Of a stretch of 64,000 nt of DNA, positions 689 through 62,932 are shown piece by piece. Positions within the stretch are counted from its first letter, which is position 1. Every line of letters begins with the position of its first letter. Source of the stretch: Bacteroidia bacterium (lineage in GTDB: Bacteria > Bacteroidota > Bacteroidia > CAIKAF01); assembly GCA_030427255.1 (NCBI GenBank), contig JAUHWY010000003.1:62001-126000 (forward strand), written 5' to 3'. Below the pieces are notes generated by a model. It saw only the letters and a program-made list of their open reading frames with translations. It was not told the origin of the DNA and ran no database searches. A program made the position numbers and the translations under genes.

Positions 689-1657
689 GTGAACCCTCCG
701 TATCAAATCACCCCGGAAATACTAAAACGGATTACTTCTATTTCAGAAAAAATAGGGCAGATTCATGCAAATCTTCTGGATAAACCATCACCAAAGCTGC
801 GCAAGGAAAACAAAATCAAAACCATTCATGCTTCCCTAGGCATAGAGGGCAATACGCTCACTGAGGAGCAAATCACAGCATTAATCGAAAACAAGCGAAT
901 AATTGGGCCGAAAAAAGACGTGAATGAGGTCTTGAACGCCATTCAAGTGTATAACCAATTGGCTTTATTCAATCCCAACTCGGTCAAGTCCTTTCTAAGT
1001 GCGCACAAGATGCTTATGAATGGTCTCATTCCTGACCCCGGGAAATTTCGAAATAAAGGGGTTGGCATTATGGCAGGAAATAAATTGGCGCATATGGCCC
1101 CACCAGCCGAAAATGTACCCTACTTAATGAACGATTTGTTTGCTTATGTAAAATCATCCAAGGAGATTCCGCTAATTAAGAGTTGTGTGTTTCATTACGA
1201 AATGGAGTTTATTCACCCATTCACCGATGGGAACGGCAGAATGGGCCGTTTATGGCAAACGCGCATTTTAATGCATGAATACCCTGTGTTTGAGTTCATC
1301 CCATTTGAAAACATAATCCAAAAAACACAAACGCTCTATTATCAGGCACTCTCAAAAAGCGACAAGGCCGGAAACTCAAGCCCTTTTATTGAATACATGC
1401 TTGGGGTTATCGATGAGGCACTCAACGAAATCCTTGATTTTAAACATAGGACAATGAGCGCTAAGGATCGTTTGGCCTACTTTTTCGAAATAGCCGAAGT
1501 CGAATTCAGCCGGAAAGCGTATATGAACGTATTTAAAAATATTTCTTCGGCAACCGCCAGTCGTGACTTAAAACAAGGCCTTGAGCTCGGCTTGTTTGAA
1601 AAGCAGGGCGACAAAACCAAAACCATTTACAGAAAAAAAGCCCACCACAGCCAATAA
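689..1657 (+). CDS. Fic family protein, class II (N-terminal inhibitory helix)
   Basis: This 322-residue protein carries the Fic active-site loop HPFTDGNGRMGR from His176. That motif marks enzymes that transfer AMP, or another nucleotide-derived group, to protein hydroxyls. Residues 49-55 (SLGIEGN) match the inhibitory motif S/T-x-x-x-E-G/N placed N-terminal to the Fic core, so Glu53 probably blocks productive ATP binding, as in class II Fic proteins. The last ~60 residues look like a winged helix (S-A-T-A-S-R-D-L followed by GLFEKQGD). The start is GTG at 689; no better start is visible. No separate antitoxin gene is adjacent, as expected when inhibition is intramolecular. The target is unknown. 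Confidence 0.9.
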   Translation: MNPPYQITPEILKRITSISEKIGQIHANLLDKPSPKLRKENKIKTIHASLGIEGNTLTEEQITALIENKRIIGPKKDVNEVLNAIQVYNQLALFNPNSVKSFLSAHKMLMNGLIPDPGKFRNKGVGIMAGNKLAHMAPPAENVPYLMNDLFAYVKSSKEIPLIKSCVFHYEMEFIHPFTDGNGRMGRLWQTRILMHEYPVFEFIPFENIIQKTQTLYYQALSKSDKAGNSSPFIEYMLGVIDEALNEILDFKHRTMSAKDRLAYFFEIAEVEFSRKAYMNVFKNISSATASRDLKQGLELGLFEKQGDKTKTIYRKKAHHSQ

Positions 1658-1963
1658 ACATCAAAGGTTGGAACCAATAATACCAATGATACTGCGTTAT
1701 CTATTGGTTTGGACATGGTTGGTGAATATGAAATTTCCTCAACAGAATTTTCCTTGGAACAATCCCTCATCAACCCTTTCTTTCTACCCTAAGAGATTTG
1801 CCCATTTCATTCAAGTCCTTTAAAAACGGCCAATTTGTTGAATATAAAGCTGCATATGCCCATAAAAAACCTTTCCACCTCCCGAACCTTAAGCTCCAAT
1901 TGGAATATTATTGGATGGCTTGGCTTGGCATTAATAAGTTGCTTCGGGGAAGAAGACCCTGTT
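1658..1963 (+). pseudogene. Possible decayed reading frame in two pieces
   Basis: After the Fic stop the same frame stays open to a TAA near 1800 and reads protein-like (GLDMVGEYEISS, LEQSLINPFFLP). A second frame then continues from about 1794 to a TAA near 1963 (LRDLPISFKSF, FHLPNLKLQLEYYW). Joined by one frameshift they would make a single ~100-residue tail. The second piece overlaps the beginning of the M23 lipoprotein gene in another frame, so both cannot be functional over that stretch. I recognise no family. This may be a gene remnant or chance. Confidence 0.25.
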
Positions 1964-2518
1964 AAATCCGGACAAATCAAGAAGCCCAAGAAACCAAAAC
2001 CCGTGGAACAACCCGTCGAATATCCGGTGGCCCATTCCTTTGATTATCCGGTGGGAAAACCCGATGCCAAAGGATATTATAACGCCCAAGGATTTGGTGA
2101 AAACGCCCATTTAGGGGACGATTGGAATGCCCTAACCGGAGGCAATTCGGATTTGGGCGACCCTATTTTCTCCATTGCCCATGGACTCGTAAAAATGGCG
2201 GAAAACCTTGGCGGGGGCTGGGGGAACGTCATAATTGTGGAGCATACCCTACCCAACAAAAAAAGAGTTGAATCCCTATATGCCCACTGCGACGAAATCC
2301 TGGTAAAAAAAGACCAAATCGTTCAAAAAGGCGACACCATAGCTACCATTGGAACGGCAAATGGAGCCTATTTGGCGCATTTGCATTTCGAAATAAGGGA
2401 CCAAACCAATATGGGCGTTGGCCCCGGCTATTCCGATAATACAAAAGGTTACCTAAACCCCACCGAGTTTATTGAAAGCCATAGACGGGTAGAGGACACC
2501 GCCACCTTAATAAAATAA
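1856..2518 (+). CDS. M23 family metallopeptidase, predicted lipoprotein
   Basis: The start at ATG 1856 gives 220 residues; a TTG at 1835 would add seven. A basic start and a short hydrophobic segment end in the lipobox LISC, followed by acidic residues and a Lys/Pro linker, suggesting a lipid-anchored periplasmic or surface protein. The remainder is a lysostaphin-type M23 fold. It has H-x3-D in HLGDD, an Ala-His after LYAH, and the final HLH of AHLHFEIRD, so all zinc and catalytic residues are present. Such enzymes cut peptide cross-links of peptidoglycan or elastin-like substrates. It sits in an accessory patch without an obvious operon partner. Confidence 0.8.
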   Translation: MPIKNLSTSRTLSSNWNIIGWLGLALISCFGEEDPVKSGQIKKPKKPKPVEQPVEYPVAHSFDYPVGKPDAKGYYNAQGFGENAHLGDDWNALTGGNSDLGDPIFSIAHGLVKMAENLGGGWGNVIIVEHTLPNKKRVESLYAHCDEILVKKDQIVQKGDTIATIGTANGAYLAHLHFEIRDQTNMGVGPGYSDNTKGYLNPTEFIESHRRVEDTATLIK

Positions 2519-2645
2519 GCAATGAACGGCAGCAAATCCCTTCCCTAAAAGAACACCGGAAACAAGCCTCCATTTCCCATCGACTCTTTGGCAATCAAAA
2601 CCTTGCCTAACCTAGGAGAAATCGATTAAATTAGACCACAAATAA

Positions 2646-6055: not shown

Positions 6056-7351
6056 ATGCGTACAATTTTCATGCTTGGGCTGCCGGTCCTTCTTCTTGTT
6101 TTTGGTAAGCTTCAGGCCCAAGGCGTAAAAATTTCTTCGAGTCCGGGAGCGCCGGACAGTTCGGCCATTTTGGAGTTGGATGCCAGCGATCGTGGCTTCT
6201 TAATTCCGCGCATGAGTCAGGTTCAGCGGGACGCCATTGTGAATCCTGCGGTGGGGCTGCAAATTTTCAATACCACCAGCGATTGTGTGGATATGTATTT
6301 TAACTCCGGTTGGTCTTCCATTCATTGCGGTTGCTCTCAGAGTCCTTCGGCTCAGTTTAGCCTGTCTTCCAATCCGGCAGGCACCGGGAATCCGGTTACG
6401 GCCACGGCCCAGCAAGTTGGTTCTTCAAGTTTTCAATGGAGTTTTGCTTCCGGCAGCCCCTCTTCCGGTTCGGGCTCTAGCGCAACAAGTACTTGGTCAA
6501 ATGCAGGGAGTTACCAAATAAGCTTAACGGTAACCGACAGTGCCGGCTGCAGCGACAGTTCGAGCCAGACCTTGGTGGTGAATGCCTGTTCCAACGGCAG
6601 TCAGACCTTTAGTCATACGGGTGGATTGCAAACTTGGACCGTGCCGGCCAATGCCTGCAACGTAACTATTTTGGCGGAAGGTGCGCAGGGAGGAAACGGT
6701 CAACAAGGCGGAACGGGAGGCAATGGCGCTTCGATTCAAGGCACCTTTAACAACCTAAATCCCGGCGATGTGCTGGTGGTGGTGGTTGGTGGCAGGGGAA
6801 TCTCAGGAGTTTCCGGCAATTCTTCGCGCGGCGGCGGCGGCGGTGGCGGCAGCTTTGTGTATACCCAAGCCAACAATACGCTGTTGATTGCTGCGGGCGG
6901 TGGCGGCGGTGGCGGACATAATTCCGGAAATGGTGGTCAGGGACTTAGCAGCAGCTCCGGAGGAAATGGGGCTTCAGGAAGTGCAGGCGGAAGCAATGGA
7001 AATGGAGGCGGTATTGTTACCACCAACGGTTACGATGGAGGTGGTGGCGCAGGCTGGCTGAGCAACGGTGGTTCGAATGCCCAGGCCACCGGGGGAAGAA
7101 CACGCACCAATGGATGGACCGGAGGTTCGGCCAATGCGTATAGTCCTACAGGGGTAAATGGAGGCTTTGGCGGCGGTGGTGGAGCCGAGCATGGCGCCGG
7201 TGGCGGCGGTGGATACTCCGGAGGCGGCGGTGGCCGCAATGGCAACCCCTACGGAGCAGGCGGTGGCGGAAGCTTTAATGGCGGAAGCAACCAAAGCAAT
7301 CAGTCCGGAATTAGGACTGGCCATGGGCGAATTGTAATTACTTGGAACTAA
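6056..7351 (+). CDS. Secreted PKD plus glycine-rich repeat protein (paralogue A)
   Basis: The protein has 431 residues with a signal peptide ending near LQAQ. Residues ~23-90 form a conserved segment (GVKISSSPGAPDSSAILELD, RGFLIPRMSQVQRDAI) found in many Bacteroidota surface proteins. A PKD-like beta domain follows at ~95-178 (SFQWSFASG, TSTWSNAGSYQISLTVTDS). The last ~245 residues are glycine-rich with repeated GGGGG blocks and end in GRIVITW, resembling the glycine-rich domain of ALK/LTK-type receptors and bacterial Gly_rich proteins. No T9SS tail is seen. It is followed after 4 bases by a longer paralogue. A role in adhesion or surface coat is possible but unproven. Confidence 0.75.
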   Translation: MRTIFMLGLPVLLLVFGKLQAQGVKISSSPGAPDSSAILELDASDRGFLIPRMSQVQRDAIVNPAVGLQIFNTTSDCVDMYFNSGWSSIHCGCSQSPSAQFSLSSNPAGTGNPVTATAQQVGSSSFQWSFASGSPSSGSGSSATSTWSNAGSYQISLTVTDSAGCSDSSSQTLVVNACSNGSQTFSHTGGLQTWTVPANACNVTILAEGAQGGNGQQGGTGGNGASIQGTFNNLNPGDVLVVVVGGRGISGVSGNSSRGGGGGGGSFVYTQANNTLLIAAGGGGGGGHNSGNGGQGLSSSSGGNGASGSAGGSNGNGGGIVTTNGYDGGGGAGWLSNGGSNAQATGGRTRTNGWTGGSANAYSPTGVNGGFGGGGGAEHGAGGGGGYSGGGGGRNGNPYGAGGGGSFNGGSNQSNQSGIRTGHGRIVITWN

Positions 7352-58848: not shown

Positions 58849-58879
58849 GATATGGGGCCTGTATCCTATTGGGATTCCA

Positions 58880-59070
58880 TGCTTTATCCCGCCTGAGCTG
58901 CTGCCGTCCTTTGGTTTTGGGCCATTGGGCATGCTCCTGCGGTGGCTTGCTGCCGCGCCGCCTCCTCGGAGCGCCCTATGTGCCCAAAACCTTTGGTCGG
59001 CAATCGCTTGGCGGGGTGGCCTCCATTAAGACAATGGATGCGATTCTATTCCTACCGCAATGGTAGGCCA
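58880..59070. repeat. GC-rich intergenic element ending in a CCTACC/GGTAGG hairpin
   Basis: This gene-free region (58799-59177) contains GC-rich sequence with paired words (GGGCAT-GC, GCCGCGCC) and near its right end GATGCGATTCTATTCCTACC, similar to the end of the fold-back units at 47.6 and 59.9 kb. The hairpin CCTACC...GGTAGG is at 59051-59067. No convincing gene is present. Confidence 0.5.
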
Positions 59071-59177
59071 AACGGCAGGTTATAGAAACCACTGCAGCCA
59101 CCCCGAAACTTAGGAGCTTGAACCAATTACTTAGAAAGCCTTTCCTCTTTTTCCATTCCTAAACTGCGCCTGTCCCC

Positions 59178-59627
59178 TCAGCCGGTAGTTTTTCTAGGCC
59201 AGCTTGCCGCTAACTTTTCTCGATACTTATTTTCTACCTCCTGGGCAAATGCCGCTTTGTCGTTTCTTAAAATCTCCATAGCCGGTCCATCTACAAGACT
59301 TGGATGTGCAGCCCTAAGGTTTTTGTCGCTCCATGAAGCCAGCTCTACCAGAATAGGCGTTAAGGCCAATCCCTTTTCGGTCAACAGGTAATAATTGGTC
59401 TTTCGATTGTCGGGGCGTTGGGTTTTTGCCACAATTCCCAATTCCTCCAGAAACTTGAGTTTGGTGGAAAGGATGTTGGTGGCAATCGCCTCCTCGCTTT
59501 CGGTAAAGTCTTTGAAGGTCTCCTTGCCTTCAATGAGCATTTGCTTTACAATCACCAATATCCACTTATCGCCCAGAACATCCAAGGCCGAAGTAAAAGG
59601 GCAGTCACATCTAAAATCTAAAGGCAT
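59178..59627 (-). CDS. HxlR family transcriptional regulator
   Basis: The protein has 149 residues. It starts with the typical DCPFTSALDVLGDKWILVIV, includes the winged helix (ATNILSTKLKFLEELGIVAK, YYLLTEKGLALTPILVELAS) and ends with a short helical tail. HxlR/MarR-type proteins are DNA-binding regulators often controlling the divergent gene. The divergent neighbour is the broken SnoaL-like lipoprotein gene. Its promoter overlaps that of its neighbour. Confidence 0.88.
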   Translation of the reverse strand: MPLDFRCDCPFTSALDVLGDKWILVIVKQMLIEGKETFKDFTESEEAIATNILSTKLKFLEELGIVAKTQRPDNRKTNYYLLTEKGLALTPILVELASWSDKNLRAAHPSLVDGPAMEILRNDKAAFAQEVENKYREKLAASWPRKTTG

Positions 59628-59680
59628 GGCTTAAACTTCCCTCCTTTTGGAAGGCAATACAAAATTAATATTCTATATTA

Positions 59681-59711
59681 CTTGCAAATCGAAAGCTATT
59701 TAGTAGTTTTG
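59681..59711 (+). promoter_or_regulatory. Promoter of the broken SnoaL-like lipoprotein gene
   Basis: CTTG at 59681-59684, 19 bases, then TAGTTTTG at 59704-59711, a full -7 match. It lies 31 bases before ATG 59743 and so supports that ATG as the original start. On the opposite strand TTTG (59747-59750), 18 bases and TACTTTTG (59721-59728) may drive the HxlR gene. Confidence 0.6.
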
Positions 59712-59742
59712 CTTGCGAAACAAAAGTAATAATAAACGAGCG

Positions 59743-60844
59743 ATGGCAAAAACAAGAATAAAGACGGTTTACGCGTTGTGTTTTCAAGCTTTTTGTCCTG
59801 ACCGCAGCGTCAGGGGCGAATTAAGGCACGGTCAAATCGAAAGTCCGGAGTTTACTAATTGTAAATGAGGAGCCCTGACGCTTCGGTCAGGATAAAAAAC
59901 TTGAGATTTGGCCGTAACGCAAAGTCGCCGCCAGAATAGCAGCGCGTCAACAGTCTCGAATAAAGATAGCCATTTTACTGGTACTATCAGGAATGCTCGC
60001 TTCCTGTGGCGTACACAAAAACAAATCCAAAAGCGAGCAAAATCCATCAAACCCCTCAACAATGAGCAACAAAGCAATCGTAGGCACCTTCTTGGGCGCC
60101 GTAATGAAGCAAGACACGGCCACCATGCGCCAAGTAGCAAACCCCGACTACATCCAACACAATCCCTTTGTGCCCACCGGCCTGGAGCCTTTTATCGGCC
60201 TATTGCCCGTACTTAAAGAGCACGGCACCTATGCCGAAAACATCCGTATGTTTCAAGACGGCGACTATGTGTTTATGCACAACATCTGGAAAAACGCACA
60301 ACCCTTTGGCGCAGAAGAAATGGTGGCCTTCGACATCATCCGCGTAGACGAACACGGAAAAGTAGCCGAGCACTGGGATGCCATGACGCCCTTGGTAACG
60401 GAAACGGCCAGCGGCAGAACACAAACCGACGGCCCCAGAAGCAGCAGCGACCTAGACAAAACCGAGGCCAACAAAGCCCTGGCGGTATCCCTGGTCGAGG
60501 ATGTGTTGATGGGCAAAAACCCCAGCAAAATCGCCGACTACATCAGCACCGAAACCTACCACCAGCACAACCCACAAATCAAAGACGGGTTGACCGGAAT
60601 TGTGGAAGCGGTAGAGTACCTCACCTCCCTTAACAACATGTTCAAATACACCAAAATCCATAAAGTATTGGGCGAGGGCAACTTTGTGCTCACCGTAAGC
60701 GAAGGCGAATGGAACGGAGGCAAAAAGCAGGTCTTTTACGATTTGTTCCGCATGGAAGCCGGCCAAATCGTAGAGCACTGGGATGTGATTCAAGAAATCC
60801 CCACCGAAGGCTTAGCACACAACAACGGAATGTTTGGATTCTAA
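59743..60844 (+). pseudogene. SnoaL-like (NTF2-fold) lipoprotein gene split by an insertion
   Basis: The intact-looking 3' part (from 59958) encodes two tandem SnoaL/NTF2-like domains (NPDYIQHNPFVPTGLEPFIG, VFMHNIWKNAQPFGAEEMVA; then DYISTETYHQHNPQIKDG, VLTVSEGEWNGGKKQVFYDL). The 5' part is ATG 59743 with codons MAKTRIK. Removing 59757-59958 (202 bases, with one GAATAAAGA copy) restores a continuous lipoprotein signal: MAKTRIK, a hydrophobic run and the LASC lipobox. In the present sequence ATG 59743 ends at a TGA near 59867. A downstream ATG at 59993 or 60062 could still make a non-exported protein. SnoaL-like proteins hold small polyketide- or steroid-like substrates. Confidence 0.75.
59765..59957. 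mobile_element. 193-bp fold-back (MITE-like) insertion with 9-bp target duplication
   Basis: The segment is flanked by identical GAATAAAGA copies at 59756-59764 and 59958-59966. Bases 59781-59815 are an inverted repeat of 59873-59907, with the nested hairpins CCTGACCGCAGCGTCAGG (59797) and CCTGACGCTTCGGTCAGG (59874). No transposase is encoded, so a helper would be needed. The ends are only partly complementary (GACGGTTTACGCG against GACTGTTGACGCG). The right end resembles 47601-47690. Confidence 0.75.
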
Positions 60845-61453
60845 AACCACAACACCAAGAGCGAACTACACAAGGAGACTGTTCCCACTAGTTGCGGCAA
60901 GTTGAGAAGGCGGGCCCTTAAATGCTAGAGAGCGCATCTTATCTAGTCGGCCTTATTCCGGTCTCCCTCCCCGGCGCCAAGCCGCTCCGAGCCTGCGGGG
61001 GTTCACCCCATTGGGGTTCCACCTCCTCGCCTTAGAGCGGCTAAGCGCCGGCTTCGGGCGGCCCTCCACTGGCCTTGGGGGCAATCTTTTTGGAAAATAC
61101 GCTTCGGAAGGAATGATGAATGGTGAATGATGAATGGTGAAGGGTGAATGATGAAGGGTGAATGATGAATGATGAAGGGTTAAGGGTGAATGATGAATGA
61201 TAAATGATGAGGTAAAGATGGGACATTTCCCGTCTCTCAAAACGAGGCAAAGACGGGACATTTCCCGTCTCTCAGTGATGAAAGGCCTTTGCGTGTCATT
61301 TATGCTCTCGTTTGACAGGGTTTAGCGAGATAGAAATAATTCAGCTTTGACATTTTTCATTTCCGCGCCATTTCCTCGCCAATTTGGCACGAATAAACAA
61401 AATTAAATTGCGCCTTTTTATAATCGCGCCATTTGTGCGCCAAAGTGGCGTGA
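60845..61453. other. Gene-free region with GC-rich unit and short tandem repeats
   Basis: A GC-rich unit occupies about 60955-61085 (GCCGCTC...GAGCGGC dyad). Bases 61110-61200 are TGAATGATGAATGG/GAAGGG repeats. Two copies of AGAYGGGACATTTCCCGTCTCTCA follow at 61216-61239 and 61251-61274. A GCGCCA...TGGCG dyad lies at 61421-61456, touching the end of the next gene. No gene is seen. Confidence 0.65.
61110..61274. repeat. TGAATGATGAATGG repeats plus AGACGGGA hairpins
   Basis: Imperfect short tandem repeats are followed by two hairpin units with the stem AGACGGGA/TCCCGTCT. The same repeat type plus one related hairpin occurs at 13055-13145, so the two regions share a dispersed family. Confidence 0.7.
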
Positions 61454-62932
61454 TTAATCATTTATCCTATAGCGTGTACTTCGACCAGCTCCTTCCATAA
61501 CAATCAATTCGCCATCTACCCACTTCTTAAGTAACCGCTGAGCGCTTCTTTCAGCTAATTCCGTGTACTCAATAAATTCAGCTTTTGAAACAAGGCTCTT
61601 CTCCCTAAAGATTTCAAAGTAAGCAAGCTCCACGTCACTAAGCTTTTCAATTCCTTTAAACTTAACGACTGATTTAACACCTTGTACTGTCCTAGGAAAA
61701 GTCAAAGTCAAAAAAGGTTCCTCAAAAGTGAACTTTGGGATAGGTAAACCAAAATTCTCTTTCAAAGACTTAAAAGTCTTCATCCCAAATCCTTTCTCCT
61801 CCACATAATCCATTAAACTGAAAGCATAGGTAATGATTGGGTTTCGGCTTAGAGAAGGAGCTTCAAAGGTGTTTAGTTCATCCAACGAAATTGCTGGCAA
61901 TGGTTTGCCTGGACTAGTCACAATTACTTTATTCTCATCAATCTTAATTTCACTCTTGGCACCTTCAATTTCATAATCACGATGCACCAAAGCATTTACA
62001 ATGGCCTCACGCAGAACTTCTATTGGAAAGTCAGGAACGTCCATTCTTTTAAAGGCACTCGTGTCCTTTGATAGGGGCAATACTTTCTTCAGCCATTCTT
62101 CAACTTGGTCAGGAAGTAGGACTAAGGCATCGGAAAAGTCTTTAGGTTCAATTCTTTGGTTGCCATAAGTTACATGGGCTTTTAAAACCGCACTCTTGAA
62201 TTTTGCTCGCGGGTTCTTACCAAAAAGTAAGATTCCAAAACCTGTGGGAACAAACTTTTTCTTTTCCTTATTCCACTCCATGGCTCCAAAATCTGCCAAG
62301 TATTCCAAGAAGGCTTCCTCGGTGGGCTTAAAATCAAGATTAGACTCCTTGATAAACTTCTGTAACGCCTGTTCTGAAAATTTACTGCTATCGTAATTCT
62401 CAATGGGTAACTCAATGGGTGTTCGTAAATCTTCCTCTTCGCTATCTCTTTTTCTTTCTAAAGCTTGTTTTAAAAAGGCTTTGTTTTCGTATTCTATGAT
62501 ATGCTGAAATTCACGATCAAACATTTTTACTTCAACACCATGATTTTCGAGATGTTTGATTCCTTTGCCATCTACAGTTGGGTCCCTGTCTTCAATACCG
62601 ACAAAAACTTTTTTGATTCGCGCATTTGTAGTTCTGCGGCAACATGGAACTTTAGGTGGATTTCTTTGCACACAAGGTTCAAGCGTGGTAAAAAGGGTAC
62701 AACCTTCTAAATTCTCATTAGGCAACTTTCTTTCCAGAAGGGTGTATTCAGCATGGTCTCCTTCTCTTAGTTCCCCACGAAATGCAGTTTCAATTCTACC
62801 ATCAGGAAAAAGCAACACTGCACCCACCTTGGGTGGCACCTTGCCATCAGGTCTCGGCTCGTTGACGCTCCTATTCATTACGTCTATGGCCAGTTGCATG
62901 AGTTCTTTATCGGTGTATTTCTTTTTTGCCAT
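61454..62932 (-). CDS. RibD-like deaminase fused to Schlafen/RecG-like ATP-binding module
   Basis: The protein has 492 residues. Residues ~10-155 form a cytidine-deaminase fold of the RibD kind: His60-Ala-Glu62 in GDHAEYTLLE, TLEPCVQRNPPKVPC with Cys87 and Cys97 as zinc ligands, and DRDPTVDGKGIKHLENHGVE. Residues ~185-300 match the linker region of COG2865-type proteins (GFGILLFGKNPRAKFKSAVL). Residues ~300-410 look like HATPase_c_4 (IEVLREAIVNALVHRDYEIE, VTSPGKPLPAISL). A winged helix ends it (VSKAEFIEYTELAERSAQRL). The usual N-terminal AlbA_2 DNA-binding domain is replaced by the deaminase. The domain call is solid; a defence role is inference. Confidence 0.75.
   Translation of the reverse strand: MAKKKYTDKELMQLAIDVMNRSVNEPRPDGKVPPKVGAVLLFPDGRIETAFRGELREGDHAEYTLLERKLPNENLEGCTLFTTLEPCVQRNPPKVPCCRRTTNARIKKVFVGIEDRDPTVDGKGIKHLENHGVEVKMFDREFQHIIEYENKAFLKQALERKRDSEEEDLRTPIELPIENYDSSKFSEQALQKFIKESNLDFKPTEEAFLEYLADFGAMEWNKEKKKFVPTGFGILLFGKNPRAKFKSAVLKAHVTYGNQRIEPKDFSDALVLLPDQVEEWLKKVLPLSKDTSAFKRMDVPDFPIEVLREAIVNALVHRDYEIEGAKSEIKIDENKVIVTSPGKPLPAISLDELNTFEAPSLSRNPIITYAFSLMDYVEEKGFGMKTFKSLKENFGLPIPKFTFEEPFLTLTFPRTVQGVKSVVKFKGIEKLSDVELAYFEIFREKSLVSKAEFIEYTELAERSAQRLLKKWVDGELIVMEGAGRSTRYRIND

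What the first reader, a model, noticed from the sequence alone, without database searches (positions are those of the whole stretch)
61454..62932. RibD-type deaminase fused to a Schlafen/RecG-like ATP-binding regulator
The N-terminal module keeps the full zinc-deaminase signature in its riboflavin-pathway form (TLEPC...PPKVPC, GKGI...L), but the rest is the HATPase_c_4 plus winged-helix part of COG2865 proteins, where an AlbA_2 domain normally sits first. The gene is isolated from riboflavin genes and lies in an accessory patch next to a PD-(D/E)XK nuclease gene. A nucleotide- or nucleic-acid-modifying defence enzyme controlled by an ATP sensor is a reasonable hypothesis.
Basis: partly seen in the sequence, partly recalled or inferred. 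Interest (0 to 1): 0.75.

Follow-up and report, generated by a model that had tools for sequence, protein, structure and literature searches.

The report
Restriction-linked deaminase with ATP-sensor domain
A bacterial gene that joins a zinc deaminase (an enzyme that strips amino groups from nucleotide-like molecules) to an ATP-binding control domain usually seen in Schlafen-type defence proteins; relatives in scattered bacteria sit mostly beside DNA-restriction genes, so it is probably a second-line weapon against viruses, though nobody has tested it.

Summary
The minus-strand ORF 62932-61454 (492 aa) is a CDA-fold zinc deaminase (nearest relative RibD) joined to the HATPase_c_4 plus winged-helix core of COG2865/bacterial Schlafen proteins; the usual AlbA_2 (Schlafen) domain is absent. 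It is no one-off: I found over 30 full-length relatives in Bacteroidota and Planctomycetota. In the 29 aligned, the zinc ligands H60/C87/C97 and general base E62 are invariant; the ATP-site motifs are invariant in the 23 compared over full length. It is not a riboflavin gene: the deaminase is a separate, fully supported clade, 25 of 29 genomes have a true RibD elsewhere, and no rib genes were seen beside it. Its niche is restriction-modification (RM): 16 of 29 lie within 10 kb of type I or IIG RM genes (1.7 expected), several in overlapping operons. In the window, with a nuclease-like gene and a type IIG RM gene just past the edge, it forms a ~7.4-kb insert missing from a close relative. The host's own AlbA_2-HATPase_c_4 protein sits inside a type I RM operon. 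Best reading: a 'backup effector' of RM loci whose Schlafen RNase was swapped for a deaminase. Activity, substrate, trigger and defence are untested.

The parts
61454..62932 (-). fusion gene, 492 aa (deaminase + COG2865 ATP-binding core + winged helix)
62453..62932 (-). N-terminal RibD-like zinc deaminase domain (residues 1-160); H60, E62, C87, C97
   Evidence: PF00383; TIGR00326; residues 29/29; fold
61964..62380 (-). central region shared with COG2865 proteins (residues 185-323), also matched by the PADLOC SIR2-fused profile PDLC02402 (133-343)
61697..61963 (-). HATPase_c_4 domain (residues 324-412); the invariant N-box NALVHRDY starts just upstream at residue 313, SPG 340-342 and RN 363-364 inside
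   Evidence: PF13749; invariants
61463..61636 (-). C-terminal winged-helix-like segment (residues 433-490)
   Evidence: DSSP of model; weak PF22168
63439..64000 (-). C-terminal part of a 256-aa protein (winged-helix-like N-terminus, PD...ExK nuclease-like C-terminus); continues past the window to C5:126209
   Evidence: no profile match, motif by eye
61073..61101 (+). 29-bp anchor, unique in the window and present at the empty site of the close relative G609: left edge of the ~7.4-kb RM+fusion insert (right edge C5:130471, outside the window)

Best explanation
An accessory 'backup effector' of restriction-modification loci. The parent architecture is the bacterial Schlafen protein: N-terminal Schlafen RNase (AlbA_2), minimal GHKL/histidine-kinase-like ATP-binding domain, C-terminal winged helix. 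Here the RNase is replaced by a zinc deaminase. Most likely the ATP-binding core plus winged helix holds the deaminase silent and senses infection (a phage or nucleic-acid ligand, or the state of the neighbouring RM enzyme); once released, the deaminase hydrolytically deaminates a phosphorylated nucleotide-like molecule (less likely nucleic acid), disrupting the nucleotide pool and aborting infection when restriction fails. Shown by sequence: domain make-up, intact catalytic residues, clade distinct from RibD, RM association, mobile cassette. Inferred: activity, substrate, gating by ATP, trigger, defence.
For: Intact catalytic and ATP-site residues. RM genes within 10 kb in 16/29 genomes vs 1.7 expected, P about 7e-14 under independence (from 31, 32, 43); 4-bp ATGA overlaps with hsdS in L033 and L034 and with a type III res-like gene in L184. 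The same accessory slot holds SIR2, TIR and RloC-like AAA_13 proteins in relatives. The host's own AlbA_2-HATPase_c_4 paralogue lies between hsdS and hsdM, so the deaminase version occupies the same niche. The core also matches SIR2-fused profiles, i.e. the N-terminal effector looks exchangeable. The window copy lies in a three-gene RM insert missing from a close relative. PMC12839542 describes Schlafen RNase + minimal histidine kinase + wHTH proteins as backup suicidal effectors of BREX. Precedent for an RM-silenced, phage-triggered effector: PrrC (PMC2610378); for nucleotide deaminases in immunity: RADAR, Cad1, AvcID. RibD's ribose-contact Asp101 matches D115 (29/29), and R90 (29/29) falls at the RibD Lys79 phosphate-contact column, compatible with a nucleotide substrate.
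Against: No activity or phage data. 13 of 29 copies have no RM gene within 10 kb (some contigs are short). Part of the RM association belongs to the core: 25 of 78 other HATPase_c_4 genes in these genomes are also RM-linked (counted by eye). Four RM-linked genomes are one genus. No PADLOC defence model covers the deaminase part well. The K79/R90 match rests on a gapped loop alignment.
Confidence: 0.6

Rival explanations
1. Nucleic-acid editing effector: the winged helix and core bring the deaminase to phage DNA or RNA, which it mutates (APOBEC-like), rather than acting on free nucleotides.
For: Foldseek also returns APOBEC3 structures, though weakly (E about 1e-3); Pfam Inv-AAD (AID/APOBEC-like) matches at 8.7e-10; the family has extra invariant basic residues R52, R56, K69, R90, R105; RM systems work on DNA.
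Against: RibD and dCMP deaminase (small-molecule enzymes) are the best matches in sequence and fold.
Confidence: 0.2
2. RM regulator or modulator: a ligand-binding transcriptional or complex regulator of the neighbouring RM operon, in which the deaminase serves as a metabolite sensor.
For: C-terminal winged helix; COG2865 proteins are often annotated as transcriptional regulators (own knowledge); embedded in RM operons.
Against: All catalytic and zinc residues are kept, and about half the copies have no RM operon nearby to regulate.
Confidence: 0.12
3. Ordinary metabolic (riboflavin, pterin or salvage) deaminase with an ATP-dependent regulatory tail, RM-linked by hitch-hiking.
For: RibD is the nearest characterised family.
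Against: Bona fide RibD elsewhere in 25/29 genomes; separate clade with long stem, support 100/100; patchy distribution, 7 of 396 phylum genomes besides the own copy and none of five same-genus genomes; no metabolic operon.
Confidence: 0.05

Closest known systems
Bacterial Schlafen proteins (COG2865: AlbA_2 + HATPase_c_4 + wHTH), described as backup effectors of BREX (PMC12839542)
   Same: Same HATPase_c_4 plus winged-helix core (structure match to 3lmm), same niche inside RM operons (own-genome paralogue)
   Different: The AlbA_2 Schlafen RNase is absent and a zinc deaminase stands in its place
RibD/RibG diaminohydroxyphosphoribosylaminopyrimidine deaminase (TIGR00326)
   Same: CDA fold, HAE...PC...C zinc site, GKGI-like segment, ribose-contact Asp
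   Different: No reductase domain; separate clade; RibD-invariant Asn23 and His42 columns replaced (P/T/S/N and Arg); not in rib operons
Immune nucleotide deaminases RADAR/RdrB, Cad1 (ATP to ITP) and AvcID (dC to dU)
   Same: A deaminase as immune effector under control of a sensor or partner
   Different: RADAR and Cad1 use ADA-type adenosine deaminases; AvcID is controlled by an RNA antitoxin; none carries a HATPase_c_4 core (abstracts and own knowledge)
SIR2-fused Schlafen-type proteins of pAgo operons (PADLOC Aga_SIR2-PNTD1-PNTD2; compare og_40 in PMC6299218)
   Same: Another enzyme in front of a homologous core (residues 133-343 match at E 1.5e-16)
   Different: SIR2 domain instead of a deaminase, pAgo instead of RM partners
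RM-linked anticodon nucleases PrrC/RloC
   Same: Effector gene inserted in an RM locus (PMC2610378)
   Different: ABC ATPase plus tRNase, unrelated domains

Membership tests
Bacterial Schlafen / COG2865 backup effectors | N-terminal AlbA_2 (Schlafen RNase) domain | tested here: not met
   PF04326 absent in P0001 but present in the host's paralogue
Bacterial Schlafen / COG2865 backup effectors | HATPase_c_4 minimal histidine-kinase-like domain | tested here: met
   PF13749 E 1.4e-13; N313, HRDY 317-320, SPG 340-342, RN 363-364, E378, G383 invariant in 23 sequences
Bacterial Schlafen / COG2865 backup effectors | C-terminal winged helix | tested here: inconclusive
   element order in model fits; profile match weak (E 0.038)
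Bacterial Schlafen / COG2865 backup effectors | location within RM/BREX-type loci | tested here: met
   16/29 within 10 kb vs 1.7 expected
RibD (riboflavin deaminase) | zinc deaminase site HAE / PC...C | tested here: met
   29/29
RibD (riboflavin deaminase) | score over TIGR00326 cut-off / C-terminal reductase | tested here: not met
   60.5 of 156 bits, deaminase part only
RibD (riboflavin deaminase) | falls inside the RibD clade | tested here: not met
   one branch outside RibD, 100/100, stem 1.77
RibD (riboflavin deaminase) | RibD-invariant substrate-site columns | tested here: inconclusive
   Asn23 24/24 in RibD vs P/T/S/N here; His42 column Arg 29/29; Asp101 kept (D115), Lys79 column Arg
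Anti-phage defence effector | protects cells from phage | not testable with these tools
   needs phage challenge
CDA-superfamily nucleotide deaminase | deaminates a nucleotide | not testable with these tools
   needs enzyme assay

The most novel reading that the evidence does not exclude
A new class of immune effector: a deaminase gated by a Schlafen-type ATP sensor that guards RM enzymes and fires when a phage disables restriction, destroying a specific nucleotide pool.
Probability: 0.35. Interest if true: 0.8.

Novelty: new variant of a known kind. Interest (0 to 1): 0.6.

Why it matters
It shows that the ATP-binding core of bacterial Schlafen proteins, so far discussed mainly with RNase (and SIR2) partners, also carries a deaminase, which points to a general sensor module with interchangeable effectors. 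It gives a defined three-gene cassette in which RM-linked 'backup' immunity by nucleotide or nucleic-acid deamination can be tested directly. I found no description of this fusion in the papers searched (a limited open-access library; the main deaminase-fold survey, Iyer et al. 2011, was not held).

Tried and rejected
Riboflavin or tRNA-modification role: rejected. Phage- or plasmid-borne gene: no full-length relative in 50,697 phage records, 72,556 plasmids or IMG/VR; only HATPase_c_4-level hits. Argonaute link: the PADLOC pAgo/Aga hits reflect the shared core, and I saw no Argonaute gene in the neighbourhoods read. Chance fusion or assembly error: rejected by more than 30 full-length copies. 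Paper searches for the fusion found nothing.

Full report
What is there. The minus-strand ORF 62932-61454 codes for 492 aa. Residues 7-112 match the cytidine/dCMP deaminase zinc region (PF00383, 1.7e-11), 324-412 match HATPase_c_4 (PF13749, 1.4e-13), and no AlbA_2 is found. RibD is the best solved relative of the N-terminal part and the Schlafen-like protein 3lmm of the rest, by sequence and by fold of an AlphaFold model with mean pLDDT 84.

It is a family. One genome-contig scan gave 15 loci with the same full-length fusion at 33-78% identity, in Bacteroidota and Planctomycetota. Sampled genomes added more: 7 full-length besides the window's own in a 396-genome phylum sample, 11 including the own copy in a 395-genome class sample (some are the same organisms as), and 5 full-length in 246 planctomycetes (two already known). 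It is patchy: absent from all five sampled genomes of the same genus. Across 23 full-length sequences the deaminase and ATP-site motifs are invariant; across 29 deaminase domains H60, E62, C87, C97, D115, R52, R56, K69, R90 and R105 are invariant.

It is not RibD. A tree of 29 family, 24 RibD and 18 other CDA domains puts the family on one branch with 100/100 support and a stem of 1.77 changes per site. In a 297-genome search the family domain scored E below 1e-70 only in ~500-aa ORFs, and the next matches dropped to about 1e-24 and weaker, nearly all in RibD-sized frames. True RibD genes over the curated cut-off occur elsewhere in 25 of the 29 genomes. RibD's Asn23 column (24/24 N) is P/T/S/N in the family, and its His42 column is Arg. 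Of the substrate contacts named for B. subtilis RibG in PMC8256712, Asp101 (ribose) corresponds to D115, kept, and Lys79 (phosphate) to a column that is Arg in the family, though that loop is gapped. So a ribose-phosphate substrate with another base is plausible, not shown.

Where it lives. Just beyond the window edge the cassette continues with a 256-aa protein and a 1261-aa Eco57I-type enzyme, a type IIG RM enzyme by PADLOC (4e-289). Searching the 29 genomes for N6_Mtase, HSDR_N and Eco57I puts at least one within 10 kb of the fusion in 16 of 29, against 1.7 expected if placed at random (P about 7e-14 under independence; the positions were matched by eye). Four of these genomes belong to one genus, so events are fewer; merging them leaves 13 of 26. 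As a baseline, 25 of 78 other HATPase_c_4 genes in the same genomes are RM-linked (my count by eye), so the RM niche partly belongs to the core. In L033 and L034 the fusion start overlaps the hsdS stop by 4 bp and hsdR follows. In the planctomycete L184 it overlaps a type III res-like gene and a DNA methylase follows; L186 looks like a type I locus by eye. Variable genes in the same slot include SIR2 (L082), TIR (L043) and an AAA_13 RloC-like protein (L083), and DarT lies near in L036. In the window's own genome the canonical AlbA_2-HATPase_c_4 paralogue lies between hsdS and hsdM (L188): the same niche with a different N-terminal domain.

It is mobile. In the same-genus genome G609 the sequence before window 58857 continues directly into sequence matching C5:130471, with about 110 bases between. 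That gap holds a 29-bp anchor found once in the window, at 61073-61101. So the fusion, the 256-aa gene and the RM enzyme form one insert of about 7.4 kb (61102 to C5:130470), and the HxlR/SnoaL genes to the left are probably a separate event.

How it most likely works. [quoted passage not shown] the preprint itself was not read). The present protein keeps the sensor half and swaps the RNase for a deaminase; PADLOC's SIR2-fused profile matching the same core suggests the N-terminal slot is generally exchangeable. PrrC shows that an RM-linked effector can be held silent by the RM enzyme and released when a phage disables it (PMC2610378). I therefore favour a gated deaminase that disrupts a nucleotide pool when restriction fails. 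Gating, substrate and trigger are inference.

Limits. Genome samples are draws, not censuses; contigs are often short; gene calls were simple ORF calls, unreliable in GC-rich genomes; much of the literature is not in the library.

Noticed in passing
L160 (G285:C8) 1405-2634, minus strand: A second architecture with a related deaminase (A2 match E 3.7e-24): 409 aa, deaminase at about 210-370 behind a ~200-aa helical N-terminus that looks sigma-factor-like by eye (no profile match).
   Followed up: partly
L152 (G741:C185) 1018-1977, minus strand: A shortened planctomycete version: deaminase joined directly to the second half of HATPase_c_4 plus winged helix, lacking the N-box region.
   Followed up: partly
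58858-61072: HxlR regulator (59178-59627) and a SnoaL-like protein (59993-60844) are also missing from G609; probably a separate insertion next to the RM cassette.
   Followed up: partly
61097-61274: A run of GAATGATGAATGGT-type tandem units followed by two copies of a GACGGGACATTTCCCGTCTCTCA palindromic element at the edge of the insert, downstream of the fusion gene.
   Followed up: no
61354-61460: Two 46-bp imperfect direct repeats with CGCGCCATTT...CGCCAA..TGGC just downstream of the fusion gene.
   Followed up: no
L188 (G000:C39) 6505-7044, plus strand: A DUF4062 gene overlaps the host's AlbA_2-HATPase_c_4 gene inside its type I RM operon; possibly a partner of the Schlafen-type protein.
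   Followed up: no
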